NCBI RefSeq assembly: GCF_000003605.2
Contig: NW_003151754.1
Location: 758,147-784,982, forward strand
DNA from: Saccoglossus kowalevskii
Lineage: Eukaryota > Hemichordata > Enteropneusta > Harrimaniidae
Length of the DNA: 26,836 nt
Direction: 5' to 3'
The notes under the pieces: model-generated
Told to the model about the DNA's origin: nothing
Databases searched by the model: none
What the model saw: the letters and a program-made list of their open reading frames with translations, nothing else
Made by a program: the position numbers and the translations under genes
In this document: positions 4,716-23,189 of the stretch, one piece after another
How the letters are laid out: each line of letters starts with the position of its first letter
Numbering within the stretch: position 1 is the first letter of the stretch

Positions 4716-5512
4716 CTCATAGTACTGTATGTACTGTTTATATTGCTGGAATATGTTGTTTTTCATTTACGCAATAATTTGTAATTCGAATTATCAAGCA
4801 ACCTGACAAGATTATATAACTTGTAATCGCTTTTTATATGTGTTGTAAATGTTACCGTACTCACGCAAGCTAGGATATGACTGTTTTCATGTGCGGTTTA
4901 TTATATATCGGGTCAGCAGCCAGTGGGTAGATTAAAGTAGATAATTGAAAACCACAGACCGTACTAATATGTACATAAGATACCAGTAACTGCTGGAACG
5001 AGTTATCAGTACACGAAGATAAATATACAGTTCTTGTTGTAACGCACGAGTAATTATTAAAGGGGACAATTTTATAGTATTTATACTATTTTAGTCTGAT
5101 TTTAGTCAACAAATTAAGGCAAAATGTATGTATTAGTGTGTTATAAAACCGTCGAAATCCGTTTGATATTTTGACATAGTTTTAAATGATTTGTAATTAG
5201 GAGCTTTGAACTTGGGTAATGTGTGGGTAATGGAAATACGCATCCTGAAAGCACTCTTCACTGATCAGTATATGGTTATAGCTCATTAATATTTTAACTT
5301 TTGTGTAACATTGAAAACAAATGTACAGCATTTAGTGTTTGGCAGCTACGTGTAGACAAGTCCCGGAACTGCCGTGTTCGACTAATCCGTCGCCGCAGCG
5401 GAAGAAATCTTACATGGAATTAGTCAAAACACCTAAATCAAGTTTTCATGAGAATCGTTCGAGCAACATTAATCAATTCACATTAATAAACTATTCAGGA
5501 CGACTCGGAATT
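4716..5512. other. Intergenic, no gene recognised
   Basis: AT-rich sequence with no supported exon, RNA gene or repeat that I can identify. Confidence 0.5.
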
Positions 5513-5593
5513 GCCAATTGTGTCTTTGTCCTCATCTGATTACAGAAGCCCCGAGTATTACAAATGAAAGTGCCTGGCACTTTCACAATTGGC
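5513..5593. repeat. Nested perfect inverted repeats
   Basis: GCCAATTGTG at 5513-5522 pairs exactly with CACAATTGGC at 5584-5593. Just inside the right arm, TGAAAGTGCC (5565-5574) pairs exactly with GGCACTTTCA (5576-5585) around a single T. The two structures overlap slightly, so they are alternatives. They lie about 490 bases upstream of the predicted copy 1 start site. Confidence 0.6.
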
Positions 5594-5929
5594 ACCCTGC
5601 TGCTTTGTTATTCCAAATTCCAATTCAGGCTCAGGATATTTCCCGGATTACTGTCTGACGTACAATTGGCTTTAAGTTTGCCTTTCTATACTATTCAGTG
5701 GCAAGAGAACCCACCGGGAATGGCTAATTATGTATATAATTAATCTCACAAATCTACAAGCGTAGTGGAACACAACAAACTATGTATAATACTATTGTAA
5801 ACATTATTATAAAAACACGACCTACCTACATCAAAACCCTGGACAACTACGATAATTATTAAAATTATACAGTTTTTAATTTTTTACCATACGATTTGTC
5901 GTTATTCAAAAATACGAATCGTATTAATC

Positions 5930-6061
5930 TACCATGCCCTAGACGCTCGTTGACAAATTTATACATGTAGCATTTTCCCACAATGCTTTAGTTGAATGAA
6001 AACTTTAACACCAAAATAGGTGCGTGGACCCCGGGACTCCGAAACTGGTGTATATATAAAC
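5930..6061 (+). promoter_or_regulatory. Proximal promoter of CAP gene copy 1
   Basis: This block is conserved upstream of copy 2 (15141-15252), including GACAAATTTA, CATTTTCCCACA, GAATGAAAAC and GACCCCGGG. It ends in the TATA box. Conservation while the sequence further upstream differs supports a regulatory role. Confidence 0.7.
6051..6060 (+). promoter_or_regulatory. TATA box, copy 1
   Basis: TATATATAAA lies 29 bases upstream of the shared CATTCAG initiator-like motif and 83 bases upstream of the ATG, at the normal TATA-to-start spacing. Confidence 0.75.
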
Positions 6062-6079
6062 CCCATGTAATCACAAGTA

Positions 6080-6091
6080 CATTCAGGCACC
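6080..6091 (+). promoter_or_regulatory. Putative transcription start (initiator), copy 1
   Basis: CATTCAGGCACC is shared with copy 2 (CATTCAGACACC). The 54-base leader between its start and the ATG contains no other ATG, so translation should begin at 6134. Confidence 0.55.
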
Positions 6092-6133
6092 AAAGTCAGA
6101 CAGGCAAACCGAGCAAAACTGCGACATACAAAT

Positions 6134-6211
6134 ATGCGGCTTATCATCGTCTTCGTATTCATGGCTGTGTGCTCGGCGACGTATGTGCCGAGGAAGACAA
6201 GTTTTGAACCG
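6134..6211 (+). CDS. Copy 1 exon 1: signal peptide
   Basis: 26 codons from the first ATG of the transcript. MRLIIVFVFMAVCSA is a hydrophobic signal peptide with an A-x-A-like end, followed by TYVPRK. The donor is CCG|GTAAGT, phase 0. Confidence 0.9.
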
Positions 6212-9200
6212 GTAAGTAACACCTGGTCACTTGTCACATGTATGGCGAAGACCAATTCCCAACACCGTGACCAAACTCTTTCCATTCCATTTCGTGGTTT
6301 ATTTCATTCAACATGCGACTGTCCGCTAACATGTTTAAACTGTGGGGCTAGATAAAACAAGTATCAGGGGTAAATTCTTCTCTTCGGGGTTCTCCACACG
6401 TGTCAGGGGGGAAACTCGTCTCGTCTCTCTATCGCGTCCCCTTGAGGTACGGGATCGGGGAAGTCACTTAAGCTTTACAGTCAAATAAGACACACACAAC
6501 GAAATACGTTTCAACTCTCGTCTTAGTCGATCAGTCGAGCACTCTATAAGACACAGCGCCCTGGGGAAAAAATCTCCAAGACTATCGCAAGGCTGACCCA
6601 AGACTAGCCCAAGACTATGTCAAGATTCGCCCCACGACTTTCCAGGACTGCGTCTGTTCTACTGTACTCTCCAAGACCAACTCAAACCCTCTTTTATTCA
6701 TTTTCAAAACTCTAACCAATTACAAAACAGTAAAAAGACTCTAGGGCGTAACCTTCAATCATAAAGCCAATCACACTAAGTACTGAATACGTCATATCTT
6801 ATTATTAATCGTTCACTACATTAATAACTACGGATACTAACTGTCAGAAATCGTAGTCAGAATAGCGACGGTTATCTCGTAATTAGTTCCAAATCACTGA
6901 GCCATGTTCCGTCCAAAACTTCAAATAGGCCTAAACGATGACAGACATAACACAGCAATTCGCTAATAATCAGCTAATTAAGTCGGTCAACAAATACGCA
7001 AAAACAAATTCATGACACAAGCATAAATTTCATCATTCTGATATCATCTGGTCGGCCATTACTTCGCGTGTTATTTTCATGGCAACATATATTCGATGTA
7101 CGTAAAAAATAGCAAATACATAAGTTTGTTGGATAAATGGCGATAAATACTTTAAACATATTAGCCTCACCACATATCTCACAGTCGGACACATTGCTAC
7201 CGTTTTTACAAGTACAATCTACTGTAAAACATGTCTTTTTAGCTAGCATGTTATTTTAGCTAATTTAGCTAATCTGTAATTTCGCTAATTCAAGATGTCG
7301 CTAATATAAAATAAAGTACATTTTCACAATGAGATTGTTGGCACTTTAGCTAAATTTAGATTCAGTTAATCCATGCGTGGATTCAAATTCGCTAAAATGT
7401 CATGTCGCTATTTAAACATGTTTTACAGTATTTCATTAGCAGAAATCCTAGAATGCATACCAGTATTGCAGAGTTATATGGATAACATTACGTATCTCAT
7501 ATTTCGTGAAATTTGCAAAAACTTAGACGCATGCAACTTTCAGTACAAAAATGGTAGTAAACTAGTGTAGTAATATCTGCTATATATAATTCAAGCAAAA
7601 GCACTTAAAATAGTTATAAAGCTTCAACGTCTCCTGTCGCTCTGCCTACACGTGCGTCCGTTCTCATTAATCTGGGCTTGGAACGCAACTGTTCGTGAAA
7701 ATTATAAGTTATGAACGTGACACTATAAGCTGTCAATCGAGAAATACATTTCACGACCGATGATAATAATTAGCATGATAATAGACAACACCATTTGATT
7801 GGACCATTGCGATTTACCTGGCGACGAGTGTAAAATGATTGAACGTTGGAGGATTCTGAAACGTGTCACACTGACGTGAATAAATGTAGATTTATACGAC
7901 ACTAGTGTTATATTCTGTAACTAACTCGTGCACATTGTGTGGGATCAATTCTACTGAGTTCCGGGATAAGCTACAGAATACGGCCCGGTTGACGCTCTTA
8001 CTCACATTTACTCGCTGGACAATAATGTGTTCATGCTATCTCCCATCGCATCATTCGGAGAATACATCACGGGTAATGCGATGTACACACGCATAATACG
8101 ACTAAGTAAGTTCAGCAAATTCGTTCATGGCTATTACTATCGCAGTTCTGACTGGATGGTCTGTCATTCAATTACAATGTTGTTTCAGTTCCAGTAATAT
8201 TGGGCGGGGTTGCACAGGGGAAAGTTCAACACAGTCTTTCCATAGATGGACTTCGTAGTTGAAATGAATTCGTGTCCGAATGAACGAGTACCACGCATCA
8301 TGTAAACATATTTTGTTGTTTTTGGCCGTTAAATGCATTCAAAGTCAAGTTTCTTTGTTAAAATTCATTCTGTAATCAATAACATCAGCCAACTTGAACA
8401 GTACTATTTGACTAGTTTTTGTTTTTTTTAATTTCACTCCCAAAATGCAAACACATGGTCAGTTCAATGTCGGCTGGGTTAAGTCTAATAGACCCACTTT
8501 GTTGACCTTTTATTTGGCATTAAAGTCAAGGGCACCCCGAGACAAACATGAATTAATGCATGCGGTGTCGATTTGCGTTTGCCAACCACAGCGTAAATAT
8601 CAACACATAGTAGAATAAACACAATATGAATGATGTTCGTTAAACATAGTCCCACGAACTTGGTTTAAAGCTACTCAGTGAACACGTCACCAAGCCAGAT
8701 GGTGGTAGCCAAGATTTCATTTCAGCTAAAATTATATTTCCTTAAAGAATTAAACATTTGCACTATTATCATCGATTTCTACTTGAATTGCTAGAATTTG
8801 CATCCGATAGACCCTACCGCTAAGTGTCGCCCTCTAAAGTGTAGAAGCATTTCTGTGACGTAATGGCTCGATAGGCGACATTGACTAGTACGTGAGATAA
8901 CGCCTATATCCACAGGACATCCGAACTGAAAATATACTTTTATATATTGTATTGTGTGTATCATAATGACATCTAACAAGAATTGCCGCTGTGTGTATTT
9001 TTACAGACTCGTAATCGCTTGCCCAGTGAATATTTTGCAAGAAAGAACATGTTCCTAGAGGCACTGGAATTAAAGCATGGTTTAAAGTCAACAGGTATGT
9101 GCTCAGTGCAAGTATTCAGTAAACTCGTTACGAAAAAGATCTGTTCTCGTCATAGACCAACAATGTTCTTGTCTAATTGATGTTTTCAATCACAAGCAAT

Positions 9201-12172
9201 CAATATAACATTTTTTTTAATCATGTTATAGTGAAAAGAGGAATATCGGCTGAGTACAGTAGCATGTGTGCGCAATTCTTTCCTCAAAGCACGTACATAT
9301 GCGCTGACGGAACTTATTGCATCTCCGAATTCAACTTGTGTGACGGTCATAAACTTTGCGGAGACGGAAGTGACGAAATAGACTGTGGTAGTAGTGGTGG
9401 AGATAATGGCGATAACAACGGTAAGGAAGTTATCATCGTTTTAGTATTTGTTTGTAATGATTCTTACTAAACAATAGACCATTTTATGTTCATTACGAGA
9501 TCCCGCAATATGCTTGAAAGCGAACGTAAAACCTGGACAAATAAACGCAAACAAATATTTTGTGTGAATTTTCACGCCCAATAACGTGTTATACACATTT
9601 GATGTTACAAAGAAAAACAAATCATTTGATTTTGGCGGCAAACGTTTGTTCTGTGCTTTTCACGCGATATGCGAGATTTCGTAGTGAACGCTAACCTATT
9701 ATTCTCCCAGTCAAAATCCTGTGAGATTTTAATTTAATTTTTGAAAAAGCAACAATTGTTTACTCATTTCGTATTCATCATTTATGCGTTGATGATTAAG
9801 AAGATAAATATGTATTTAATAATCCTCATATTTCATATTTCTAGGCAATACCGTAGGGGCTGCTTCGTACGACGACAATTGTGCTAGTTGGTTTCCAGAC
9901 AGCACGTATAGATGTAGTGACGGAAGTTTTTGCATACCGGAGCGTAATGTGTGCGACGGACACACTCTCTGTGGTGACGGTAGCGATGAGATTGGATGCA
10001 ATGCCGGAAACAATAATGGTGGTAACAATGGTGGCAATAACGGTGGAAACAATGGTGGCAATAACGGTGGTAACGGTGGTGGAAATGGTGGTGGAAACGG
10101 TGGAAACAATGGAGGCAATAACGGTGGAAACGGTGGTGGTAGCAGTAATTCAGGTAAAATAACGACGTTGAAAATATGCTAAGAGATGAACGCTTCGAAT
10201 TGAGAAAAAAACAAATATTTATTAAAGAAAAAAATGAAATTAGCTAATCAATTGTTCCAATTAAAGAGGAAATAAAAAAACAAATTAACTTTATTTTCCC
10301 AAGTTGAACATCACTTCAATGTCTCAAAATATACAGCTTAAAATAACGAAACACAACATCGACACCATCACACTGATATGAACAAGGCAGAAAGTTGTTC
10401 AGTTCGTATTTCGTTTTGTATGTGCCAACTATAATAACATAATTCCACACTTCACTTGTAGAACCTGAAGCTTATGAAGACAAAAACGGTTGCGGCAAAT
10501 GGTATCCGAATAGCCCATATACATGTGCAGATAAAAGTTTGTGTCTAAAAGAAAATCAACTTTGCGATGGTCTCATCTACTGTCTGGATTACAGTGACGA
10601 AGTTGGATGTGGTAAGTCTTCGTTCACGTTACAGGGGTTGCTTAAATAGTTATTTGTATTACTGAGTATATTCTGTACAGTTATAGCAATATAACCATGT
10701 GCACTCATGTGCTCGAGAACCCGTATGTGATATGACGCTATTATGTTTTACCCGCTATGGGAAGAGCGTTTCTTTTACTACAATCTACATCCCAACAATA
10801 AAACAGTATTCAAACTTCAAGTTGAACCCAATTACAAATAATATGGCGGTTGACATGCATGCATAACTGGATGGGAAATTCCAGATCTTTAGTTCGGTAT
10901 ACGTAGTCGCACTACATGTAGCATTTTATATTCAGTAACCATAAATGACATCTGACATACTAACTAAAACTTAATTATTCACAGGATACGGTGAAACTGA
11001 CAGCAATGGTTGTACGGTACCAAAGCAAATGGGTAACAGTGGAACCAAAGATTTCGAAGACCAACTGCTCGAAGCGCATAACTATTTCCGTTGCTTGCAC
11101 GGAGTGGAGCCGCTCACCTGGGACAGTTCACTGGCACAGACGGGTCAACTCGTGGCACAGGACAACGCAGACAGGGGAATGCTTAAACACAGCAGTTACG
11201 GATATGGTGAAAATCTCGCTATGTCTGGACTGGAAAATATGAGTTACGCAACAGGTAGGAGAAACATCAGCTTATTTATGGCATAAACTTACAAGATGTA
11301 GTAGGTCCAAAGTTTAGCAACAATTTTATGCTTACTATTATTTGCTCTCAAACACATCATACATATATTATATTTTTTGGATAGTTCAGTCACGAGTAGC
11401 TCTCTCTAGTAACATGGTAGAGTGACGACTTACATCATGGTAGTAATTTTAGACAGAATAACTTAGTAAACAAAGTTAAATTCGACATCCGGTTACATAG
11501 TTACTGAATGTAATTAATAATGTAAGTCCAATGTCAATGAAATTTTAGGTAATGTATACATGGAATCCGCCGTTTGCAATAATTTCTATACGAATTATAT
11601 ATTGTTTTGTTTTTATTCAGGTTATGGATTCGTCAAGATGTGGTACGACGAAATAGAATTTTACAATTACGGTAATCCCGGATTCTCTTCCGCTACCGGT
11701 AAGTTATTCAAGTTAACACTCTGGGACTAAAAGTCAAATCTACGATGCTAAAGTAGTGTCGCAATTGATATCATTGCAATTTTATTTTGCCGTGATAATT
11801 GAAATTGGAAAACAAAGATTATGACGACAATGTTTGGGGCAAACAAACACGTTGATATTTTCTGAATTCAAAAGTATTTCAAAATTATTTCCATGGGCCG
11901 AATGTAGGTAGTTGTTCATATTTCGTGTCCCATGCCTTCCTGGTTAAACAGCTAAAGCAAAAAAAAAGTCGAGCTTGACAAGTGTCCAAAATCATCCTCA
12001 TTCTCACTCGTTCTTTCCCGTAGGTCACTTCACCCAGGTTGTGTGGGCAGATAGCAAGACGCTTGGCTGTGGCGCTGTCGACGATGGCAACAGAGTTTGG
12101 CTTGCCTGTGAATATAGCCCACCTGGCAATTACAACAACCAGTTCTCTTCAAACGTACCTCAACCATTATAA
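6134..12172 (+). CDS. Secreted LDLa-CAP protein, copy 1 (8 coding exons)
   Basis: The exons at 6134-6211, 9007-9094, 9232-9420, 9845-10153, 10462-10611, 10985-11254, 11621-11698 and 12024-12172 join in one frame (1311 nt, 436 residues). All introns are GT-AG; the first is phase 0, the rest phase 1. The order is a signal peptide (1-15, cut after CSA), a basic segment (16-58), LDLa modules with six Cys each at 68-107, 131-170 and 232-271, an Asn/Gly-rich linker at 171-221, and a CAP domain at about 293-430. The CAP cavity tetrad is His340, Glu347, Glu372 and His389. The CAP1 signature GHFTQVVW is present, and the CAP2 signature reads ACEYSPPGNY. LDLa modules bind Ca2+ through the C-terminal DxSDE region and usually mediate protein or lipid-particle binding. 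CAP domains are secreted sterol-, lipid- or protein-binding folds. The in vivo role is unknown. It is a tandem paralogue of the gene at 15317. Confidence 0.93.
6571..6650. repeat. Degenerate short tandem repeats
   Basis: Units such as CCAAGACTA, CAAGGCTGAC, CCAAGACTAGC, CCAAGACTATG, CAAGATTCGC and CCACGACTTT follow one another at about 11-13 base spacing. The flanking DNA is locally richer in C than the rest of the intron. Confidence 0.55.
7220..7430. mobile_element. MITE with TA target-site duplication
   Basis: TACTGTAAAACATGT (7220-7234) is exactly inverted at 7416-7430. The inverted similarity continues inward, with gaps and mismatches, for about 35 bases (TTTTAGC...CATG). The outermost TA on each side is the expected Tc1/mariner-type duplication, leaving a 207-base element (7222-7428). 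The interior is rich in GCTAAT / TTAGCTAA phrases and codes for nothing. It is absent from copy 2's intron, so it inserted after the duplication or was lost there. Confidence 0.75.
8305..8600 (+). promoter_or_regulatory. Conserved non-coding blocks in intron 1, copy 1
   Basis: Sequence from about 8305 to 8444 (TTTTGTTG, AAATGCATTCAAAGTCAAG) and from about 8445 to 8570 (GCAAACACATGGTCAGTTC, CCTTTTATTTGG, GACAAACATGAAT) is also found in order in copy 2's intron 1 at 18254-18376 and 18636-18785. Retention in an otherwise divergent intron makes an enhancer possible. Leftover similarity from the duplication would look the same. Confidence 0.5.
8795..8920 (+). promoter_or_regulatory. Conserved block upstream of exon 2, copy 1
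   Basis: Phrases around GATAGACCCTACCGC, GTCGC, GTGACGTAA and AGGCGA match copy 2 at about 19790-19900 in the same order. GTGACGTAA resembles a CRE/bZIP site and is kept in both copies. Confidence 0.4.
9007..9094 (+). CDS. Copy 1 exon 2: basic segment
   Basis: 29 codons plus one base (TRNRLPSEYF ... HGLKST). The acceptor is TTTTTACAG and the donor ACAG|GTATGT, phase 1. It is about 75% identical to copy 2's exon 2 and matches no domain I recognise. It may be a propeptide or short helix. Confidence 0.88.
9232..9420 (+). CDS. Copy 1 exon 3: LDLa module 1
   Basis: 62 whole codons between phase-1 introns. Six Cys and the CGDGSDEIDC ending define a complete LDLa repeat (residues 68-107), followed by a Ser/Gly/Asp/Asn tail. 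Copy 2 has no counterpart. A Lys-Arg pair (residues 57-58) just after the exon junction could be a convertase site. Confidence 0.9.
9421..9844 (+). other. Copy 1 intron 3 (424 bases)
   Basis: Phase-1 intron between LDLa modules 1 and 2. The last 50 or so bases resemble the end of copy 2's intron 2. Nothing else is seen in it. Confidence 0.8.
9845..10153 (+). CDS. Copy 1 exon 4: LDLa module 2 plus Asn/Gly linker
   Basis: 102 whole codons, phase 1-1. LDLa residues 131-170 end in CGDGSDEIGC. The exon then runs into about 48 residues made almost only of Asn and Gly, ending in SSNS. Copy 2's matching exon 3 is 108 bases shorter, with only a brief Ser/Gly/Asn tail. Confidence 0.92.
10011..10139 (+). 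repeat. Coding minisatellite (Asn/Gly)
   Basis: In-frame units of AACAATGGTGGC type with GGT/GGA and AAC/AAT variants repeat about ten times. Strand asymmetry opens a Pro-rich shadow frame on the other strand. Confidence 0.85.
10154..10461 (+). other. Copy 1 intron 4 (308 bases)
   Basis: Phase-1 intron. The first 30 or so bases match the start of copy 2's intron 3, and the acceptor CACTTCACTTGTAG is identical in both. No other feature is seen. Confidence 0.8.
10462..10611 (+). CDS. Copy 1 exon 5: LDLa module 3
   Basis: 49 whole codons, phase 1-1. Cys at 232, 243, 249, 256, 262 and 271. The Ca2+-site segment is LDYSDE instead of the usual xDGSDE, so the acidic ligands are kept but Gly is Tyr. 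It is about 89% identical to copy 2's exon 4. Confidence 0.92.
10612..10984 (+). other. Copy 1 intron 5 (373 bases)
   Basis: Phase-1 intron. Its first 24 bases (GTAAGTCTTCGTTCACGTTA...) are identical in copy 2; the rest is poorly conserved. Confidence 0.8.
10985..11254 (+). CDS. Copy 1 exon 6: CAP domain, first part
   Basis: 89 whole codons, phase 1-1. It contains the CAP start (FEDQLLEAHNYFR), His340 in HSSYGYGEN and Glu347. Only 5 of 270 bases differ from copy 2's exon 5, three of them silent. Confidence 0.95.
11255..11620 (+). other. Copy 1 intron 6 (366 bases)
   Basis: Phase-1 intron. The first 90 or so bases align to copy 2's intron 5 at roughly 80%, then similarity fades. No other feature is seen. 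Confidence 0.8.
11621..11698 (+). CDS. Copy 1 exon 7: CAP domain, middle
   Basis: 25 whole codons, phase 1-1, with the WYDE motif supplying Glu372. 7 of 78 bases differ from copy 2's exon 6, giving several amino-acid changes after the motif. Confidence 0.93.
11699..12023 (+). other. Copy 1 intron 7 (325 bases)
   Basis: Phase-1 intron. Little similarity to copy 2's shorter intron 6 beyond the ends. Nothing else is seen. Confidence 0.8.
12024..12172 (+). CDS. Copy 1 exon 8: CAP domain C-terminus and stop
   Basis: 48 codons plus TAA at 12170-12172. It starts with the CAP1 signature (His389) and includes CAP2 (ACEYSPPGNY). The tail is SSNVPQPL. Three of 149 bases differ from copy 2. Confidence 0.95.
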
Positions 12173-12365
12173 AGATTACACGTCGAAAACATAGAACAAA
12201 ACTAAATCTCCCGCCGACATATTGCGTAATTATTTTGCGTTTTCTATTCTTCCAATCATGCACATGAAAAATGTTCATTTCATAAAACACATTTTTTCAT
12301 GAAATTCTTACAATTGAAAGATTTATTTCGTGTTATGTATTTTTTTTATAAAAGAAAATAGTTTA

Positions 12366-12371
12366 AATAAA
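12366..12371 (+). terminator. Poly(A) signal, copy 1
   Basis: AATAAA about 195 bases after the stop, inside the phrase AAAATAGTTTAAATAAACTG, which copy 2 shares almost exactly. Confidence 0.7.
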
Positions 12372-12390
12372 CTGTTGAAATCTCATATAT

Positions 12391-13489
12391 TCCGTCTTAT
12401 GCATATTACTAGTATATAATAATCACCAATTATATTGTGATCATATATCTTATCTAATCAAATCTGAGATTTTCAAAAATTGTGCGATGAGTGCATTTTT
12501 CTCGTTTGGGTTGCTTGTCTTTCATTTTCGCAATATTATACTGAACAGTTTGTTTGCCAAAACTGAAATGAATAGTACAATTTTCTTCACTGAAATAAGA
12601 AGTGTGTATTTAAGTTGAATCGCAATCAGTGTTAGTTGAATGTTGCTGGCATGCAAACTATATCTGACCCAGCTCTTACCTTTTCATCAAAAACTCACCG
12701 AACAAACGAGAAATGTTAACACAGACAAAGTGGTAGCTAAACCATACATAATTATTCATTTTTTGTGGTACCACAGTGCAAAATTAAAGAGCGCCACCAC
12801 GTGGCCTCTAATTGATACAGCCTATAGACACCGTTGAAAGGTAGTCCATGACACGAGTAACACCGGGTGTTTGTATGATACAATTGGCTGAAAAAAAATC
12901 GTATTTTTAGTAAAACTGTGCCAAAATGCGTTCCGATGCCAACATGGCTATACATTTACTGATTCTAATAGTGTGGGTTGTTGCTTCGACGGTGATGGCC
13001 TACAGACGACCGACTTCGAAACATTCCATACAAATTGGACGGCGTCCTCTTCTACCATTCCCCCCCCCTGAGCGTGTGTAGACAAGGCCCAATCTGCAGC
13101 GTCAATTGCCCCCCCCCCACCTTGCCCCCCTGAGTAACACATCAGACTCTTAAGTAATGGAACACACAGTTTTGTAAACGAGAAGTGGATGGTATATGAA
13201 AACGTGACCGTCACGGTTTCAATCTGAATGATGCCCATTTTAAGGTAGAAGCAAAAAATTGCAAATACCCAGAATCCATTTAGTTTGCAACAAGTTGTAC
13301 TCCCGGACATTGACTTAAAAGAGTAGTGGTCATCATCGAGAGACTGATGGCTGAATTTTAGTAGATAGTGACCATTTTGCGCAATATTCTCTTCTCAAAG
13401 ATCGACATCTCGACATGGAGCTATAAAAAATAAATTCAAGTTCAACTTTTCACGTTTCAGAAAAAAAATGTCTTAATGTATGTACTAGA
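12391..13489. other. Intergenic, poly-C tracts
   Basis: No gene recognised. Runs of 9, 10 and 6 C occur at 13060-13068, 13109-13118 and 13125-13130, and the first and third are followed by TGAG. The reverse-strand frame 12948-13310 is Gly-rich only because it crosses these runs. Confidence 0.6.
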
Positions 13490-13611
13490 GTATTCATCAA
13501 ATAAATATGTTACTGAATACAATGTAATCGGCTAAAACATACCGCCTTGGGTTTATCTAAATAAACTAAATACAGTTCATGGTTTTCAAGCATAATTGCA
13601 AGCTGGATAAG
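13490..13611 (+). repeat. Repeat block A, first copy
   Basis: Shares TACTGAATACAATGTAATCG, TTGGGTTTATC, AAATACA and AGCATAATTGCA, in order and orientation, with 26697-26818. Confidence 0.75.
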
Positions 13612-13708
13612 TCGAACGTTATATTTTATGTAAATGTTGATAAACTTGTGGTAGTTAATACCAGACTTGTGAGTAAATGTAAAGTAAATGCCTCTACATA
13701 CTATATAC

Positions 13709-13850
13709 GAAGCTATCAGTAATAATTAAAAAAAAACAGTCATAACGTCACGGTGTTTAGTAGCATATAAACCGAGCATTTTAGAGTTCATGCTACAAAC
13801 AAGTCGGAATATCCGAGTTTGTGTATTGTTTGAAAAAAATATTGGCAGTT
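13709..13850 (+). repeat. Repeat block B, first copy
   Basis: Shares ATCAGTAA, GTGTTTAGTAGCATAT, CCGA and AGTTTGTGTRTTG with 25749-25855. It lies about 100 bases after block A here, but about 840 bases before block A in the second locus. Confidence 0.65.
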
Positions 13851-14289
13851 AGATACTTTGGGGCATAAAGAAAATATCCACACAGGGATTATTACATGAA
13901 ATTTGCTGGGAAATGTCCCACACGTCTGATTGAAATAATAAAAAAAAGGTTACAGCTACATAATCGTGCATGTAAAATAATCTTATCGAGTGATGCCGGT
14001 ATTTCCTACCAATAGTTATGAAAATGTGACATTCATCGGCTGAACTACAGAGACATACATTGTAATTATTGTCACGTGCGCATGCGCAATTAGTTTGTTG
14101 CCTGTAAATGTAAGATTGGAGGGATGTATTTTCACATAAAACGTGTGTATTACTTAACAACTTGAACAAAGATAGGGGGCTTCATAACTCTGCGCCCCTC
14201 ATCAATTTTAGAAATAGACATTACTATACCAAATTGTTAGCACTTAGGACAGTGAGGCTCAGCATTGCTATGGACACATCATAATGTTT
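13851..14289. other. Intergenic, no gene recognised
   Basis: No supported coding exon or RNA gene. A reverse-strand frame at 13849-14169 has no recognisable domain. Confidence 0.5.
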
Positions 14290-14366
14290 AGCCTGATAAA
14301 TTGGCGTAGGTGGCGCCTTGTACTGCTGCGAACCCATCTGCGCCACCTACGTCAACTTTTCAGGCT
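14290..14366. mobile_element. Tiny TA-flanked foldback element
   Basis: Arms at 14290-14316 and 14340-14366 pair at 24 of 27 positions (AGCCTGA...CGTAGGTGGCGC) around a 23-base loop. The TA at 14289-14290 and the TA at 14366-14367 fit a mariner-type duplication around a 75-base element. Confidence 0.65.
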
Positions 14367-15140
14367 ACATAATGTGTTACGCTTCATAATATTATAAATT
14401 ATAACAGATTTTATCATCTGAGCTCTCGTTATATATGTATTTGTCATAACCTTCGTTTACTTGTTTTCTTACATCGAGTGGTTTGTCTGAATTAAATATA
14501 TGTCTCTGAAAACATCTGTTCGCTCTCTCCAAGTAAACCAACTGATTACTAGTTCACAAACAAACATACACTGTACTATTGAAAACATTGCCCACAGGGA
14601 CAATGAAATATCTATCGTAGAGATCGGGCGGGAAATGTAGTGTGTCAGGGTCAGCTGTTAACGCATAGCTCAACTGTGTGAATACGACAACAAACTTCAT
14701 TTCTTACAGTACAGTGCAGTCTTCACCCACTCACATAAAATATCAAGTTATACTCCGTTGTTTGTTTCAATGTCTGGCATATTCTTCAACTGAGCCTGAC
14801 AGGGTCATAGTAGAAGAAACAGGCAGTGCAGTCACAAGTAGTTGGATTTTAAGACAGAAAGGTAGCAGACTGGTTACTAAAATATTTGCCAAAAATGACA
14901 GACGCATAAAGTGACGATGACAGAGCAGTCTTGAATAGTCTGCATGTTGAAATGTCGGCAGTCTGTAATTTGGAATTTTGGATTACTGTGAAGTGTTTCG
15001 AGTCTGAGTGTAAAGAAAAATAGTGAAGCACGTGTGGTGAAGACCAATTTTAAGGACTCTTTCATAATAGTGCTACAAAGTTTTAATCGGATAATAATGA
15101 GTTTCTATGGTTACAGTCGTTAAAAATTACGAAACGTACT
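14367..15140. other. Intergenic, no gene recognised
   Basis: Upstream of copy 2. No supported exon, and not obviously similar to the sequence upstream of copy 1 until about 15141. Confidence 0.5.
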
Positions 15141-15252
15141 GATCCACCAGGCCTTAAATGCCCCTTGACAAATTTACAACATTTTCCCACAGGGCAGTAA
15201 CCGAATGAAAACATTTGTGCAGACCCCGGGGACACCTAGATTGGTATATATA
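15141..15252 (+). promoter_or_regulatory. Proximal promoter of CAP gene copy 2
   Basis: Matches 5930-6061 through TTGACAAATTTA, CATTTTCCCACA, GAATGAAAAC and GACCCCGGG, and ends in a TATA box at 15245-15252. Confidence 0.7.
15245..15252 (+). promoter_or_regulatory. TATA box, copy 2
   Basis: TATATATA, aligned to copy 1's box. The distance to CATTCAG is only about 18 bases because about 10 bases are missing compared with copy 1. Confidence 0.65.
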
Positions 15253-15262
15253 CCGTTAAGTC

Positions 15263-15274
15263 CATTCAGACACC
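15263..15274 (+). promoter_or_regulatory. Putative transcription start region, copy 2
   Basis: CATTCAGACACC matches copy 1's initiator-like motif. With normal TATA spacing, the start would fall at or just after its 3' end. The leader to the ATG (54 bases from the motif) has no other ATG. Confidence 0.45.
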
Positions 15275-15316
15275 ACATTCAGAAAAGGAGCCTGGAGGAA
15301 ACGGCTATCCATCAAA

Positions 15317-15394
15317 ATGCGCCTTGTCATCGTCTTTACAGTCATAGTTGTGTGCTCGGCGACTTACGTGCCGAGGAAGTCAAGTTTTATACCG
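15317..15394 (+). CDS. Copy 2 exon 1: signal peptide
   Basis: 26 codons, MRLVIVFTVIVVCSA then TYVPRK. Donor CCG|GTAAGT, phase 0. About 83% identical to copy 1 exon 1. Confidence 0.9.
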
Positions 15395-18300
15395 GTAAGT
15401 AACGATGAGTTGTATGGCTGGCAGAGATTGCCATAGCTACATCTCTCGGTTCCAATTCGTGGTTTAATTCGCTCAACACACGGCCCGATCGACACTCAAA
15501 ATAATTAACCACCTCACTGGCAGAAACGTTGCCAACCAAAACTAGTGTCCTATTTTTATATAATTACGCACCGACCGGCTGGTTCTGCTAGTCGTGAATC
15601 TGAATTTTTCGCACGATGCGAAAGCGGCGTTTAAACAATACATTAGTCAAGTTGGTTAAATATTAAACCCGTACCAATAAAATACACAACCTTTTTTAAT
15701 GAAAAAAACTAAATACAAACATGACATTTTCGTTCTCATAATGTACCTTTTTCATATATATTTATACGAGGTTTGGGTAAAGAAGACTTGGACGCTCATC
15801 AAAATAATTTCCATGAACTCGGAATCACATACATTCAAAACGCGACACACATGTTTGCCATTTGGGATATCTTGGCAAAGTTGCGTGTTTCCCATAATAT
15901 TGTTTGGCTATGAATGGTAATCCCAATGTCAGTGCATGTTAAAACACCATCCATGTAAAAGGGCTGAGTCTCTTATGGAAACATACAAGGCAGGGTGAGA
16001 AAATCCAGGTCTGAATGTCACAGCGAAAATTCGTTTCTTGTCGCTATCTCTACGTGAACAAAGGATAAATTTACATGCAAAACCCACAGTGTGATTTTTG
16101 TGTAATTTTATATAGAGTCTGGGTAAAAATATTTAAAATTCTATTGATAAATATTTTTGATATAAGAACTAACAAAACAGTAACCAACACAATAATAATA
16201 CACTTCACCATTATAATCGACGGTTTGGGCGGGACTCGTGGGGCATGTTCTGTTGTTACGGCTTGGGTTAAATACAGAGTGTGGACGGCTTTTTCTATAT
16301 AGGTCTGGCTATAGTAGCCATGGCGACAGTTAACCGTTGTTGTTAGGTGCCTAAGCTTAATTAAAAACAGAATAAAACCGTGGTGGTGAAAATACGAGCC
16401 CTCGACATTATCGTTAAAATGAAGAGAAGTGAATTACTAATTACTGTTTCGAGTTTTTTCTGTGGATTACATGTTAGGTAAATCGGCTGTACAAGGTCTC
16501 TTCTAATTCGTAATTAATGTTTCAATGACTGAGGGTCGGTAAAAGTTGCAAGTCTGATCCATGTAAGGTACAATCACATAGTACGTCAACCAATCATAGT
16601 GCAAAATTAGAAAAAGCGTTGGTCTCCTTCTGGCGACGATTGATCGACCTGTTACGCTGGCTCTGTGTGAGAATCTGATTATTGTCAAGGTAATACGCAT
16701 ATGATTTGGGTTCAAACATGAGCAATTGCTGTTTCTGGCAGAACGTGTTCAAAGCATCGCTATTATCTCTGGAAATTGCGTATGAGGATTGTAATTTGTC
16801 AACGTTTTTGTCAAAGTTTGACAGAGATGACACTTTAAGAACGACCTTGAGTATTGTTATTATATGCGACATTTCCCATAATCAGTGTCAATAGCACGCC
16901 TATATTCACACAACAAATCTTGCATTGTACATTGAGTCCTCGTTTAAACATCCAATCAATTCATCTAATTCAAATCACGTGGCTTACCAGGTTAAACCTC
17001 GTGATTTATTACGATTTGTCAACGTGTTGCTTTTTTGTATTTTGTAAAATGTGAGCTGACAGAAGTAATTTTCCCTTTAATTTAAAAAAAACGCCGCTTT
17101 GTGGTTCGACATGGTTCAGGGTTGAACTATAAAAGGTAGGATAACAATGTCATAATGGTTTTTACAAAAGAACTATCGCCCGTATTGTTATTATGGACGA
17201 CTTTTCCCATAACCATCGTTCATGTTTTAGTAGTAGCACTTCAATCCACAACAGTCAAGCCATGATACCACAATTGTGACGCCCTCGTTTAAAACAGCAT
17301 CCAATCAATTCATTTAATTCAAGTCACGTGGCTTGCTAAGAGATTTGCCAATATAATTATAGTACTGTGCCTTTTTGTCAAAAGCTTCATCATACCCACA
17401 AAAGGATGCAGTTGATACGTGTTCTACCTAAGTGTTTTAAAAGGCGGTAGTCGTCGCGTCACGCATGCGCGAGATAAATGGGTCTCATATAAAGATGGCG
17501 ACTTTTACTATTGCCAGATCAACGAGTACAAACTGAGACGTTTCCAAGTTTTAATTAGGTAATTTTTGATTGGAAGCTATCGAAGGAGTCACCGGCGGTA
17601 TTCAGTGCAAGTCGCGCCCAGTTCAAGCCTCATACTTGTGATTTACTTGCGACAACCACCGCGCTTTAACTAAAGATACAATGAGGTACCTCTACAAGCC
17701 AAGCGATTTTCCATATGCGTATGTACACAATAAGTGACCACGTAATACTTAATAATATTTCGTTACGCCGTGTTGTAATAATTTTGGCAGAGATGTATTA
17801 AATGTAAATAAATAAAAAAAGTCAAAATAAAAGGCCACATTGCCGGATTTTATACATGTAAAATAAAGAGAATAGTTTCCAGGGAATCTTGTAGAAAAGT
17901 CATTAAATTTTGCCGGAGTGTTAAGGTGTCGTTCACAATCTTAGGCTGGGACGGATGGTTGTGAGGTAACCATTCATACGTATTCCAATCCAGAAAATGG
18001 TTAATATTTGCGTAATTTGGTCGTGGTTTTGGTTTAAATGTGTCGATAATATAAGTTATTCAGTTTTTGTGAGCTTTTTTCACAGTTAAGCTGTGTACCA
18101 CTGCCTAAAATTAAGATAATATGTATCTGTGACGTCATCGCGTCTAAGGAGTGTCCTTCCTTATCGCACTTCGCGCTCGCACTAGGGAATCAGTTGACAA
18201 GCCCCAGATTTCAAATTAACCACAATTTCTACTCACTGGCGCATGCAAAAGTATTTTGTTGGTTTTGGCCTTCAAATGCATTTAAAGTCAAGTTTCTTTG

Positions 18301-21300
18301 TCTAAATTTATTCTGTCGTGAATAATATCAGTCAATTTGAACAGTCAAATAACTGTTTTTCCCTGTTACTCCCAAAGTGACACTGACTAGACAAGATGCC
18401 GACTTTGAAAAATCTAACAGACTAGTGAATCGGTCTGCAAGAATGTGGGCGAGTCTTACATACGGGTCCTTCTGCACATGCGAGTTCTCATGGTAATGTA
18501 CTGACGTCATGGAAACAGCCAATCAGTGATGACACAGAAATCTGTGCCATCTATGCGTTTACGTAGCGACTTGCCTAACCAATCTTGAGTACACTGGGAA
18601 GGGCACCTTGAACGGTTGGATCCCAGGCTACCAACGTGCAAACACACGGTCAATTCGTTGTTAGCTGTGTTGAGGGAAACACAATAAATCCATTTTATTA
18701 CCTTTTATTGGATATTGAAGTTAAAGACACCCTCGGGACAAACATGAATGCATTGGGAGAAGGCGTTGTCGAATTCTGATTGCTGAATAAAATGTCACCA
18801 CATTGTTTATTGTTTGTAGAAAAAACACGGTAAGCACGTATGCACATTTGTTACTCCAGTGTTATGAAGTCACTCATTGCCAACAGCAAGCATGTTTGGG
18901 TGGTCATTATGCCGCATTATAATGATATATTTTATATATATATATCGTAAATACATATTTTATGTTTATAAATGTATCGTCTGCAATAAGTATCACGAGA
19001 GTACAAAACCCTTCCATGAGTCTTGAGACCTGGCAATCACGTGATCATATCAGTGGACTTTAAACATTGGTTGACGACGTCCCCATAATAATTGTATTTT
19101 CAGTAAAATGTGAAGCATGTAATTAGGATTGCAACCCGACCTAGAAATGGAGGGTTGGTGAGTAATAAAACCGATCTAGTTGTGTTCGGAAATTGAGGAA
19201 CCTCTTGCGTGCATTCTTCAGCAACAATTACAAAAGTATAGAGACAGCAACCCCGCATAACAAGGGGCACGCGCCTCCCTGCGTCAACTGTTGCCTGGTA
19301 TTGAAGGTAGAGAATGGAGGCAGTGTACAGTTCGATTCACGTACGATTCGCGTACTATTCACGAATGACTGACACACCTCCCAAATACCCAATTGAAATA
19401 CCTATAAATTTTGTTATATCGTAATTTGCGCCAATAAAACAATATTTTTATTTATAACCTTGAATTGTCAAATAATGAGTTTATTTCCACATATAAACAT
19501 ATATATGTATGTATGAATTGCACGAAAATAGTATACAGAAATCGAACCGTACGCTGTCTTCACATTAGTAAAAGTTATATAAAATATGAAGTCGAATAAA
19601 CATGACATAAACAATATTGAGTAAACGTAAGCTCTTCTTTGAATGGTTTTAAAAATACTCCTTGAACACGTCACTATTTTTTATGGTTATAACAAAGTGT
19701 TCGCCTAAAAGTCATACGTCTTGAGAAAACTGTACATTTCACTATTATTACGAAGAAGTATTTTTATTATTGGTGTTACGTAATTGCTAAGACTTGCGTC
19801 TGATACACCGTACCGCAAAGTCGCGCCTTCTGGCGTCAAGGCATTTAATTATGTGACGTAACTGGTCCAGTAGGCGAATACAATACCACGTAATAAAATG
19901 CTCATGTCCCGACAAGATGACATATTAATTTAAAATAATGATATTAATAAACATATAATAATGTTTCATTCAATACAATTTGGAACTGTGTGTATTATTA
20001 CAGATTCGTTCTGGTTTGGCCGGTGAAAATGTTTCACGAAAAAACATGATCTTGAAAGCACTGGGGTTGATACGTCATGGTTTAAAGTCAACAGGTATGT
20101 ACTCAGTGCATATTCAGTCAAAATACATTACGCAAAAACTACGTTATAGAAACAAAAAAATGTATTCGAATAAAAAAAATCAGTGAACAGTGGTACGCAA
20201 TACTGTCATCAAAACCCAACTACGGGACAATGTCAAATCGTAGAATGTTCAGTGTACATTTAGAACGCTGGACGATGATACCAGTAAATCGTTTTGGAAC
20301 ACTTGCCGGAACGCTCTGGTCGAAATAAATTTACAAATTAAAGAAGGTACGACGTTCTTTGAGATTTCACGTATAGGTTGATAAGTTGTTAGTGATGGGG
20401 GTGATGACGAAAAGATATGTGTATAATAATCCCTGTATTTCATGTCACTAGGGAATACTGTAGAAGCTGCTTCGTACGACGCCAATTGTGCAAGTTGGTA
20501 TTCAGACTACACGTATAAATGTAGTGACGGCAGTTTTTGCATAGGAGAGTCTAGTCTGTGTGACGGACACACACTTTGTAGTGACGGCAGCGATGAGGTT
20601 GGTTGTAATAGCGGAAGCAATGGCGGCAACGGTGGTAGCATCAGTGTTCTAGGTAAGGGAACAACGCTGAAAATACGGTCTGAATGGAGAGAATACAAAT
20701 AATGACAGGACAAAAACAGAAGGAAGACAAAAAAGGCAAAATCTCTTCTATGCTGGCATATTCACAATCTAGCAAAATTAATTTACAAATAGACAAAAAG
20801 AAAGTTGACCGCAGTTCCACAGTTGCGTCCCTAACACAATTCAAAGTATTTCACCAACAAACCAGAAAGCACCCAGAAATTGTAGACCTTCGCCTAGCAG
20901 CTCATTTCTCTATATATAACACCTAAAATATATGCCCCATTTTATCTACATTGTTGGATTCCTTTACCATGACAACATACAACCAGCATTTGATATTATA
21001 CTTATATCATATTTACTTCAAAATTTAATGCATCATTAATTATGTTTGTTACCAATAAAATATTTCCGGAAATTCTTTTTTTTCATGGCAACCAAATCTG
21101 AATCTTGACCCAAATTGATTGGTTCGCGTTGAGAGCAAGTCCTTTTGACATTGTTATGAGAATTCTCCCATAACCTTTTGAGTTATAAGGAAAAAGTCAT
21201 TACCAAAATTGCTGTTTTCATTAACATTACGCATATCTCTATCAACATCATTTAATGGGTTCGTGGTGTATCAAGGGCAACTCCTCCTAGGACTTTTATG

Positions 21301-23029
21301 AGAATCGATCCATAACGTTTTTGTTATCATGCTAAAAAGCGAAACAAAAACACAACAACAACAAGCCAGTTCTACCAAAAACATAACGAATCAAAACATC
21401 AACACAGACACGTTACTATAGACAAGGCATTATATTGTCTACCTCGTTTTTTTACATACCGTTTATAATTTCACAATTCCGCACTTCACTTGTAGAACCA
21501 GAGGCTTATTACGACCCAAACGGTTGCGGCAAATGGTACCCGAACAATCCATATATATGTGCAGATAAAAGTATGTGTTTGAAAGAAAGTCAACTTTGCG
21601 ATGGTCTCATCTACTGTCTGGATTACAGTGACGAAGTTGAATGTGGTAAGTCTTCGTTCACGTTACAGGTATTTGTACTGCTGCTCATATTCTGTGCAGT
21701 GACTACAGTAAGCGACTCGTGTCACGTTATTATTGTAATAAAACACCGAGCTATTGGGAGGGGTCTCCTGCTTATACAATCTACTTCACAGACAATATTG
21801 CCCTAGGCATATATATATACATAATTTTGGCGGTTAAGTGTAAACATTGAATACCATGCACAACTGCTTTTAGATTGGTCGATCACTATATGTGGTCCCA
21901 AAGAACGTGCATCTTCTGAGTGATGACATTCTAACTATAACCCCAATTACTTTCACAGGATACGGTGAAACTGACAGCAATGGTTGTACGGTACCAAAGC
22001 AAATGGGTAACAGTGGAACCAAATATTTCGAAGACCAACTGCTCGAAGCGCACAACTATTTCCGTTGCTTGCACGGAGTGGAGCCGCTCACCTGGGACAG
22101 CTCACTGGCACAGACGGGTCAACTCGTGGCACAGGACAACGCAGACAGAGGAATGCTTAAACACAGCAGTTACGGATATGGTGAAAATCTCGCTATGTCT
22201 GGACTGGAAGATATGAGTTACGCAACAGGTAGGAATGTCGGCTTATTTACGACATTAACTTACAAGATTTAGTAGAACCATGTTTAGTAACAATGTTATG
22301 CTTACTATTATTTGTTCAATTTTTCAGTCAATTTTTACAATCAATTATTTGCTTTAAAACACACTATGCGCGACTTTTGGATAGTTCAATCGCGAGTAGT
22401 TCTCTCAAGTGACGTGATCGACCGACGACATATCCCAAATCGTTTCCTGGTGTTCATCGTCCGCTTAATCTAGATCGACCCCAAGCCTGGGTTGTTTCTC
22501 TATACAAAGTAACTTCAATTTCAATGAAGCTTCAAAATTTGCAAATGTGCGTATAAAATCCGTAGATTGTTCTAATTGTATCATGAACTATATATATTGC
22601 TTTATTTTACAATTATAGACCAATTTATTTTGTTCAGGTTATGGATTCGTCAAGATGTGGTACGACGAAATAGACTTTTACAATTACAATAATCCCGGCT
22701 TCTTTTCATCTACCGGTAAGTTATTATCACTCTGCTGCTAGTAGTCAAATCTACAAGCAATGAATGATGTTGTTACAAACAATGTTTGGAGCGAACTGAT
22801 TAAAAAACAACGGTAGCGGGCAGTATTTCATTTCATAGCGATAAAAATAATAGAAACTAAACTGTCGTTTTCTCTCGTAGGTCACTTCACCCAGGTTGTG
22901 TGGGCAGATAGCAAGACGCTTGGCTGTGGCGCTGTCGACGATGGCACAAGAGTTTGGCTTGCCTGTGAATATAGCCCACCTGGCAATTACAACAACAAGT
23001 TCTCTTCAAACGTACCTCAACCATTATAA
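15317..23029 (+). CDS. Secreted LDLa-CAP protein, copy 2 (7 coding exons)
   Basis: The exons at 15317-15394, 20004-20094, 20452-20652, 21496-21645, 21959-22228, 22638-22715 and 22881-23029 join in frame (1017 nt, 338 residues). Splice sites are GT-AG, with phase 0 then phase 1 throughout. The order is a signal peptide (1-15), a basic segment (16-57), LDLa modules at 69-108 and 134-173, a short Ser/Gly/Asn linker at 109-123, and a CAP domain at about 195-332. The tetrad is His242, Glu249, Glu274 and His291. No frameshift, early stop or lost Cys is seen, so it should be functional. Relative to copy 1 it lacks the first LDLa exon and the long Asn/Gly linker, which accounts for the 98-residue difference. 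Its first intron is 1.8 kb longer. The role is unknown; the architecture suggests an extracellular Ca2+-dependent binding protein. Confidence 0.93.
16851..17340 (+). repeat. Degenerate direct repeat in intron 1
   Basis: Units at 16851-16990 and 17182-17340 share GTATTGTTATTAT, TTTCCCATAA, CCTCGTTTAAA, CATCCAATCAATTCAT and TCACGTGGCTT in the same order, separated by about 190 bases. The similarity is too weak for a recent duplication. Confidence 0.7.
18254..18785 (+). promoter_or_regulatory. Conserved intron 1 blocks, copy 2
   Basis: Counterpart of 8305-8600 in copy 1. The block is split by an extra 259 bases (18377-18635) between ACTCCCAAA and GTGCAAACAC, which are adjacent in copy 1 (with ATG for GTG). 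Confidence 0.5.
20004..20094 (+). CDS. Copy 2 exon 2: basic segment
   Basis: 30 codons plus one base (IRSGLAGENV ... HGLKST), one codon longer than copy 1 through an Ile-Arg near the end. Acceptor TATTACAG, donor ACAG|GTATGT, phase 1. Confidence 0.88.
20095..20451 (+). other. Copy 2 intron 2 (357 bases)
   Basis: The start resembles copy 1 intron 2 and the end resembles copy 1 intron 3. The LDLa exon that separates those in copy 1 is missing, and I see no remnant of it. Confidence 0.8.
20452..20652 (+). CDS. Copy 2 exon 3: LDLa module 1 and short linker
   Basis: 66 whole codons, phase 1-1. Six Cys at 69-108 with CSDGSDEVGC, then NSGSNGGNGGSISVL. Orthologous in position to copy 1 exon 4, at about 83% over the LDLa part. 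Confidence 0.92.
20653..21495 (+). other. Copy 2 intron 3 (843 bases)
   Basis: 535 bases longer than copy 1's intron 4. The extra part contains two related phrases near 21110-21190 and 21250-21340 (GGTTCG..., TTATGAGAAT...CCATAAC.TTTT), a weak direct repeat. No exon is seen. Confidence 0.7.
21496..21645 (+). CDS. Copy 2 exon 4: LDLa module 2
   Basis: 49 whole codons, phase 1-1, six Cys at 134-173, with the same LDYSDE variant as copy 1 exon 5. 16 of 150 bases differ. Confidence 0.92.
21646..21958 (+). other. Copy 2 intron 4 (313 bases)
   Basis: Phase-1 intron. The first 24 bases are identical to copy 1 intron 5, then divergent. A TA run lies at about 21810. Nothing else is seen. Confidence 0.75.
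21959..22228 (+). CDS. Copy 2 exon 5: CAP domain, first part
   Basis: 89 whole codons, phase 1-1, containing His242 and Glu249. Differs from copy 1 by Asp-to-Tyr before FEDQ, Asn-to-Asp near the end, and three silent changes. Confidence 0.95.
22229..22637 (+). other. Copy 2 intron 5 (409 bases)
   Basis: Phase-1 intron. The start aligns with copy 1 intron 6 at about 80%, the remainder weakly. No other feature. Confidence 0.75.
22638..22715 (+). CDS. Copy 2 exon 6: CAP domain, middle
   Basis: 25 whole codons, phase 1-1, with WYDE giving Glu274. Ends FYNYNNPGFFSST. Confidence 0.93.
22881..23029 (+). CDS. Copy 2 exon 7: CAP C-terminus and stop
   Basis: 48 codons plus TAA at 23027-23029. His291 in GHFTQVVW, CAP2 ACEYSPPGNY, tail SSNVPQPL. 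Near-identity with copy 1 continues for about 8 bases past the stop and then falls away. Confidence 0.95.
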
Positions 23030-23183
23030 AGATTATGTTAGTGGACACTCGAATTAAATCTTTCATCGACGTATCGCGTTAGCTATTGCGTTTTCTTTCT
23101 TCGAATCATCAATAAATTCTTATAATTATTATAAACATATAATCTACCTCTATGTTTTGTAAGCGTTTGTAAAAAATAGTTTC

Positions 23184-23189
23184 AATAAA
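23184..23189 (+). terminator. Poly(A) signal, copy 2
   Basis: AATAAA in AAAATAGTTTCAATAAACTG, aligned to copy 1's signal and about 155 bases after the stop. An earlier AATAAA at 23111 is not conserved. Confidence 0.7.

What the first reader, a model, noticed from the sequence alone, without database searches (positions are those of the whole stretch)
6134..23029. Tandem LDLa-LDLa-CAP secreted proteins: an uncommon domain combination
Seen: two head-to-tail genes, each joining a signal peptide, two or three LDLa modules, a low-complexity linker and a CAP domain with all four cavity residues. Known: most animal CAP proteins are CAP alone or have C-terminal Cys-rich, LCCL or similar additions. 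Inference: N-terminal LDLa arrays would give a Ca2+-dependent, possibly lipoprotein-binding, secreted CAP protein, perhaps a lineage-specific family.
Basis: partly seen in the sequence, partly recalled or inferred. Interest (0 to 1): 0.75.

Follow-up and report, generated by a model that had tools for sequence, protein, structure and literature searches.

The report
LDLa-linked CAP secreted protein family
Two neighbouring animal genes each appear to encode a secreted protein with two or three LDLa modules in front of a sterol-carrier-like CAP domain, and the same combination recurs elsewhere in this genome, so it looks like a real gene family whose partner molecules are unknown.

Summary
Splice models at the stated coordinates give open frames of 436 and 338 residues. 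Pfam finds three and two LDLa modules plus one CAP domain in them, all above curated cut-offs. The combination recurs: a diverged gene on contig C3287 has the order KR-LDLa-Gly linker-LDLa-CAP, and contigs C2159 and C2864 carry an LDLa exon close 5' of a CAP exon. That argues against separate LDLa and CAP transcripts, although no RNA data were available.

The CAP part is Pry1/GAPR-1-like with all four cavity residues, so lipid or sterol binding is plausible. The nine LDLa modules seen lack the aromatic residue and the second acidic residue of the LDL-receptor lysine-docking site, so LDLR-style lipoprotein binding is unlikely and calcium binding doubtful.

New here: the last CAP exon is 95-98% identical among three tandem copies while other exons of copy 3 and the flanks diverge, which points to exon-limited gene conversion. 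How widespread the architecture is across phyla could not be tested.

The parts
6051..6060 (+). TATA-like box of gene 1
   Evidence: TATATATAAA; the region aligns with the gene 2 promoter
6134..6211 (+). gene 1 exon 1: start codon and hydrophobic N-terminus (signal peptide, inferred)
   Evidence: splice model
9007..9094 (+). gene 1 exon 2: propeptide-like segment
   Evidence: splice model
9232..9420 (+). gene 1 exon 3: VKR dibasic site and LDLa-1 (residues 68-107); no counterpart found in gene 2
9845..10153 (+). gene 1 exon 4: LDLa-2 (131-170) and the NNGG-rich linker
10462..10611 (+). gene 1 exon 5: LDLa-3 (232-271)
10985..11254 (+). gene 1 exon 6: CAP domain, first part, with tetrad His340 and Glu347
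11621..11698 (+). gene 1 exon 7: CAP domain, tetrad Glu372 and caveolin-motif-like YNYGNPGF
12024..12172 (+). gene 1 exon 8: CAP domain end, GHFTQVVW with tetrad His389, stop; homogenised exon
12366..12371 (+). AATAAA downstream of gene 1
15245..15252 (+). TATA-like box of gene 2
   Evidence: TATATATA
15317..15394 (+). gene 2 exon 1: start codon and hydrophobic N-terminus
20004..20094 (+). gene 2 exon 2: propeptide-like segment
20452..20652 (+). gene 2 exon 3: LDLa (69-108) and short Gly-rich linker
21496..21645 (+). gene 2 exon 4: LDLa (134-173)
21959..22228 (+). gene 2 exon 5: CAP domain, first part (265 of 270 bases as in gene 1)
22638..22715 (+). gene 2 exon 6: CAP domain, caveolin-motif-like YNYNNPGF
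22881..23029 (+). gene 2 exon 7: CAP domain end and stop (146 of 149 bases as in gene 1)
23184..23189 (+). AATAAA downstream of gene 2 (another at 23111)

Best explanation
These are two tandem members of an animal gene family of secreted modular CAP proteins. Each has a signal peptide (inferred), a short propeptide-like part (ending in a dibasic site in gene 1), two or three phase-1 LDLa exons with a Gly/Asn-rich flexible linker, and a C-terminal Pry1/GAPR-1-like CAP domain. Inferred: the CAP domain binds a sterol or fatty acid, with the His/Glu tetrad holding a metal. Inferred: the LDLa modules act as disulphide-stabilised protein-contact arms that place the CAP domain on a partner, not as LDL-receptor-type lipoprotein or lysine docking sites. 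Because the LDLa exons of the window genes have phase-1 borders on both sides, modules can be gained or lost without a frame break, while gene conversion (inferred) keeps the last CAP exon uniform.
For: Open splice models with phase-1 module borders. Pfam hits above cut-off. CAP closest to Pry1 (97 bits) and GAPR-1 (90.6 bits), with snake venom CRISPs at 27-44 bits. Tetrad and an aromatic-x-aromatic-x4-aromatic loop present. Pry1 CAP binds cholesterol and holds Mg2+ at the tetrad (PMC4921858, passages). Independent diverged gene with the same order on C3287. LDLa exon within 700 bases 5' of a CAP exon on C2159 and C2864. Exon 8 differs at 4 of 149 bases between copies 1 and 3, against 57 of 268 aligned bases (plus 7 gap columns) in exon 6, Fisher p 2.9e-8. 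dS is 0.056 and 0.016 in CAP exons 6 and 8, against 0.48 and 0.32 in the LDLa exons.
Against: No RNA evidence for exon joining. AATAAA occurs in the intron between the last LDLa exon and the CAP exon in both genes (10797, 21737), so a short LDLa-only transcript cannot be excluded. No binding test was possible. No LDLa exon was found in the 691 bases 5' of the C3982 CAP exon, nor next to the C1052 CAP exons in the stretches fetched, nor in C3287:76000-85999, which ends 2.6 kb before the CAP exon at 88566. In Pry3 the mating effect is independent of lipid binding (PMC7340583, passages), so a tetrad-based activity is also possible.
Confidence: 0.5

Rival explanations
1. LDL-receptor-like reading of the first reader: the LDLa array binds calcium and lipoproteins, and the CAP domain is carried with the particle.
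For: Six cysteines and the acids at positions 25, 35 and 36 are kept in the seven modules tabulated; modules of LRP2, VLDLR, LDLR, LRP1 and enteropeptidase are the nearest solved relatives.
Against: The aromatic at position 22 and the acid at position 29 are missing in 9 of 9 modules seen, and position 29 is Leu or Tyr in all 5 window modules. In LRP1, absence of the aromatic goes with inability to bind RAP (PMC8239462, passages); the VSV G complex uses the same acids and aromatic (PMC5847621, passages).
Confidence: 0.1
2. The proteins are secreted effectors of a gland (saliva, venom, mucus or skin secretion); tandem expansion and varying LDLa number reflect selection on that secretion.
For: Centipede venoms hold CAP proteins and LDLa proteins as separate components (PMC4379518, and PMC4619613, passages); a tandem array of CAP genes occurs in a blowfly (PMC7694928, passages); about 23 first-CAP-exon matches in this genome (my count of the rows).
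Against: The CAP part is closer to Pry1 and GAPR-1 than to snake CRISPs. There is no C-terminal Cys-rich domain. No expression data.
Confidence: 0.25
3. LDLa and CAP exons are neighbouring genes or alternative transcripts and not one protein.
For: AATAAA in the joining intron of both genes; read-through of the last LDLa exon meets a stop after a tail of about 13 residues in gene 1 and about 53 in gene 2.
Against: The phase-1 junction and the G-x-G-E-x-DSNGC start of the CAP exon are kept in a diverged paralogue with an open spliced frame, and LDLa next to CAP recurs on further contigs. Whether the CAP exons have a start of their own was not tested.
Confidence: 0.07

Closest known systems
Pry1 / GAPR-1-type CAP proteins (PF00188)
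   Same: CAP tetrad, GHFTQVVW motif, caveolin-motif-like loop; best solved relatives by sequence
   Different: Pry1 has a Ser/Thr-rich part beside its CAP domain (PMC7340583, passages) and GAPR-1 is CAP alone (recalled); here two or three LDLa modules precede the CAP domain
LDL-receptor family class A repeats (PF00057)
   Same: six-cysteine module with the SDE motif; here one module per exon with phase-1 borders
   Different: no transmembrane segment, EGF or YWTD match reported by Pfam; aromatic-22 and acid-29 of the docking site absent in 9 of 9 modules seen
Multidomain animal CAP proteins (CRISPLD with LCCL, CRISP with Cys-rich tail, barnacle CAP-MAM, mussel SCP-ShKT)
   Same: CAP domain joined to another extracellular module
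   Different: other partner modules: CAP-MAM in Pollicipes adhesive (PMC8371367, passages), SCP with ShKT in the Perna shell (PMC6641155, passages); LCCL and CRISP forms recalled, the LCCL name seen in PMC10448888 (passages)

Membership tests
CAP superfamily (PF00188) | profile match above the gathering score over the whole domain | tested here: met
   67.6 and 65.1 bits, positions 1-117 of 117
CAP superfamily (PF00188) | cavity tetrad His, Glu, Glu, His | tested here: met
   H340, E347, E372, H389 in gene 1 and equivalents in gene 2, matched to the Pry1 alignment
Pry1-type sterol-binding CAP | caveolin-binding-motif loop (aromatic-x-aromatic-x4-aromatic) | tested here: met
   YNYGNPGF and YNYNNPGF, aligned with YDFSNPGF of Pry1; that this stretch is the Pry1 motif is inferred, the formula is recalled (the defining paper was not held); a second motif match, YGFVKMWY, also occurs
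Pry1-type sterol-binding CAP | binds cholesterol or fatty acid | not testable with these tools
   needs recombinant protein
CRISP proper | C-terminal Cys-rich domain after CAP (recalled) | tested here: not met
   both proteins end 20 residues after the last CAP cysteine
LDLa module (PF00057) | profile match and six cysteines | tested here: met
   3 and 2 stretches above cut-off; six cysteines in the seven modules tabulated
LDL-receptor-type ligand-binding repeat | aromatic at 22 and acids at 25 and 29 for lysine docking | tested here: not met
   D25 kept, 22 and 29 changed in 9 of 9 modules seen; numbering recalled, spacing checked against W66/D69/Q71/D73 (PMC5847621, passages)
LDL-receptor-type ligand-binding repeat | four acidic calcium ligands | tested here: not met
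   three of four kept in the seven modules tabulated

The most novel reading that the evidence does not exclude
A diversified recognition family: the lipid-carrying CAP end is kept uniform among tandem copies by exon-limited gene conversion, while LDLa arms change in number and surface by exon gain and loss. Different members would bring the same CAP activity to different targets, for example microbes or mucus components.
Probability: 0.1. Interest if true: 0.7.

Novelty: new variant of a known kind. Interest (0 to 1): 0.4.

Why it matters
CAP domains are mostly known alone or with C-terminal additions (recalled). A family in which LDLa modules precede a Pry1-like CAP domain would offer a natural test of whether CAP proteins are aimed by partner modules. 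The near-identical last CAP exon among three tandem copies, with diverged flanks, also looks like a clean case of exon-limited gene conversion.

Tried and rejected
Lipoprotein docking by the LDLa array was considered and largely rejected on residue grounds. Reading the high identity of CAP exon 8 as plain constraint was rejected for the C4171 copies, because the same exon in the C3287 paralogue is only 50-52% identical in protein. A viral-contig search with the CAP part gave 4 pattern matches, none a relative. A genome-contig search gave 156 prokaryotic CAP relatives, of which 80 were kept, 36-48% identical; they show the broad CAP family only and were not used further. NCBIfam gave only a YkwD match far below its cut-off. 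An LDLa-1 remnant in gene 2 was looked for by tblastn and not found. Whether the neighbouring 200 kb hold more copies is mostly unanswerable, as 131,166 of 200,000 fetched bases read N. A count of LDLa exons next to every CAP exon of the genome was planned; the search machine did not answer. The Choudhary 2014 paper on the Pry1 motif was not held. One search, a paper search on LDL-receptor docking residues, led to the two papers read. No structure prediction was made, since the spliced protein is not a contiguous translation of the window.

Full report
Observation. The window holds two head-to-tail genes on the + strand. Gene 1 has exons 6134-6211, 9007-9094, 9232-9420, 9845-10153, 10462-10611, 10985-11254, 11621-11698 and 12024-12172. 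Gene 2 has exons 15317-15394, 20004-20094, 20452-20652, 21496-21645, 21959-22228, 22638-22715 and 22881-23029. All introns are GT-AG. The first intron is phase 0 and the rest are phase 1. The products have 436 and 338 residues. Pfam gives three and two LDLa stretches and one complete CAP domain, all above the curated cut-offs. Each gene has a TATA-like box in front and AATAAA behind, and the promoter regions align.

One protein or two. No RNA was available. The LDLa to CAP junction is a phase-1 intron in both genes. It splices to an open frame of 289 residues with two LDLa stretches and a CAP domain above cut-off. The first 1467 bases of L106 read N, so its signal-peptide exon was not seen. 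Against one protein: AATAAA occurs in the joining intron of both window genes (10797 and 21737), so intronic polyadenylation cannot be excluded.

Family in the genome. The genome has 572 Mb in 4830 contigs, and the window is C4171:758147-784982. A search with the CAP part gave 51 matches at E up to 0.01 on 12 contigs; the tool says such counts are lower bounds. About 23 of the 51 rows are of the first CAP exon by my count. I examined the 5' side of 8 of these 23. Five have LDLa exons in front: both window genes, C3287:70814, C2159:363183 and C2864:31235. The third C4171 copy has only N on its 5' side. C3982:40979 has none within 691 bases. C1052:42116 has none in the fetched stretches, and the last exons on that contig look GAPR-1-like by eye. 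For a ninth, C3287:88566, I hold only 76000-85999, where no LDLa was found; the 2.6 kb before the exon were not fetched. The other 14 were not examined. A separate CAP gene on C2668, found by the profile search only, has an EGF-like Cys-rich frame nearby by eye.

LDLa residues. In LDL-receptor modules the ligand lysine is held by acids of the calcium cage and by an aromatic residue (PMC8239462, passages; PMC5847621, passages). The seven modules tabulated keep six cysteines and the acids at 25, 35 and 36. Position 22 is N, N, Q, S, Q in the window, S and N on C3287, E on C2159 and Q on C2864. Position 29 is L, L, Y, L, Y, then N, Q, N, Q (the last two modules read by eye from the translations, the C2864 one cut at its start). 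So 9 of 9 lack both the aromatic and the second cage acid. Asn or Gln could still lend a carbonyl to calcium; Leu or Tyr side chains could not. This weakens the calcium claim and argues against LDLR-type lipoprotein docking.

CAP part. The nearest solved chains are Pry1 (97 bits) and GAPR-1 (90.6 bits), then plant PR-1 and Ves v 5; snake CRISPs score 27-44 bits. The tetrad is complete, and an aromatic-x-aromatic-x4-aromatic loop aligns with YDFSNPGF of Pry1. The Pry1 CAP domain binds cholesterol, and Mg2+ sits at the tetrad (PMC4921858, passages). Lipid binding is therefore the best guess for the CAP end, inferred and not shown. There is no C-terminal Cys-rich domain, so these are not CRISPs in the strict sense.

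Homogenised exons. Between genes 1 and 2, synonymous divergence is 0.48 and 0.32 in the two shared LDLa exons but 0.056 and 0.016 in CAP exons 6 and 8, and 0.154 in exon 7. With rounded counts (4 of 88 against 17 of 55 synonymous sites) the Fisher test gives p 3.6e-5. A shuffle test on the longest run without third-position differences gives 0.017. A third copy lies 5.4 kb beyond the window end (C4171:790356-791942, in L095). Its exon 8 matches gene 1 at 145 and gene 2 at 142 of 149 bases, but its exon 6 matches gene 1 at only 211 of 268 aligned bases and its exon 7 at 58 of 76; p 2.9e-8 for exon 8 against exon 6. The 60 bases on either side of exon 8 match at 37-38 (5' side) and 37-43 (3' side) positions in the three pairs, against 34-36 in three shuffles of one pair, so they are near chance level. 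In C3287 the same exon is 50-52% identical in protein, so plain constraint does not explain the identity. Exon-limited gene conversion does. Around exon 6 the similarity of genes 1 and 2 runs on some 90 bases into the following intron.

Module turnover. Gene 1 exon 3 (LDLa-1) left no trace in gene 2 by tblastn, and is closest to LDLa-2 of the same gene (57.6% over 66 residues). Because its borders are both phase 1, gain or loss keeps the frame.

Literature. Eight of the ten paper searches put LDLa or LDL-receptor terms with CAP, SCP or CRISP terms; four of them (5, 14, 17 and, for the Pfam LDLa name, the 15 of 74 papers listed in 64) held no paper with both. Of the papers that held both I read passages only. 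Centipede venoms hold LDLa proteins and CAP proteins as separate components (PMC4379518; PMC4619613). The Perna shell lists LDLa and SCP in different proteins, the SCP one with ShKT (PMC6641155). The leech saliva paper treats CRISP and LDLR-A proteins in separate sections (PMC7191736). The starfish spine paper showed a CAP protein with signal peptide and SCP domain only; its one LDLa mention was not among the passages shown (PMC10448888). Coral skeletal matrix names both domains in its legends; whether in one protein could not be seen (PMC7853314). Barnacle adhesive has CAP with MAM (PMC8371367). A blowfly has a tandem array of 16 CAP genes (PMC7694928). The library is limited to open licences, so absence is weak evidence.

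Verdict. A real LDLa-CAP family, with at least three genes seen at length and two more seen in part, in one unnamed animal genome; a new variant of a known kind.

Noticed in passing
L095 (C4171:784983-794982), 5374-6960: Third tandem CAP copy beyond the window; its 5' side is N, so its LDLa content is unknown. Its exon 8 is nearly identical to gene 1.
   Followed up: yes
window 1-507: Open frame that looks like a tyrosine recombinase (HxLRSGGAT...GRW pattern, recalled); Pfam gave no match up to E 1.
   Followed up: partly
window 12914-13081: Frame between the two genes holding MRSDANMAIHLLILIVWVVAS, a signal-peptide-like stretch; no family match above cut-off.
   Followed up: partly
window 10797 and 21737: AATAAA in the intron between the last LDLa exon and the first CAP exon of both genes; possible intronic polyadenylation or chance in AT-rich sequence.
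   Followed up: no
L106 3058-3410: Array of 30-base direct repeats, twelve starts from 3058 to 3379, in an intron of the C3287 LDLa-CAP gene.
   Followed up: no
L112 9692-9988 and L113 2257-2553: CAP gene of a different type on C2668 with an EGF-like Cys-rich frame downstream, by eye.
   Followed up: partly
C4171:658147-758146 and 784983-884982: 131,166 of 200,000 fetched bases read N, so copy number near the window is a lower bound.
   Followed up: no
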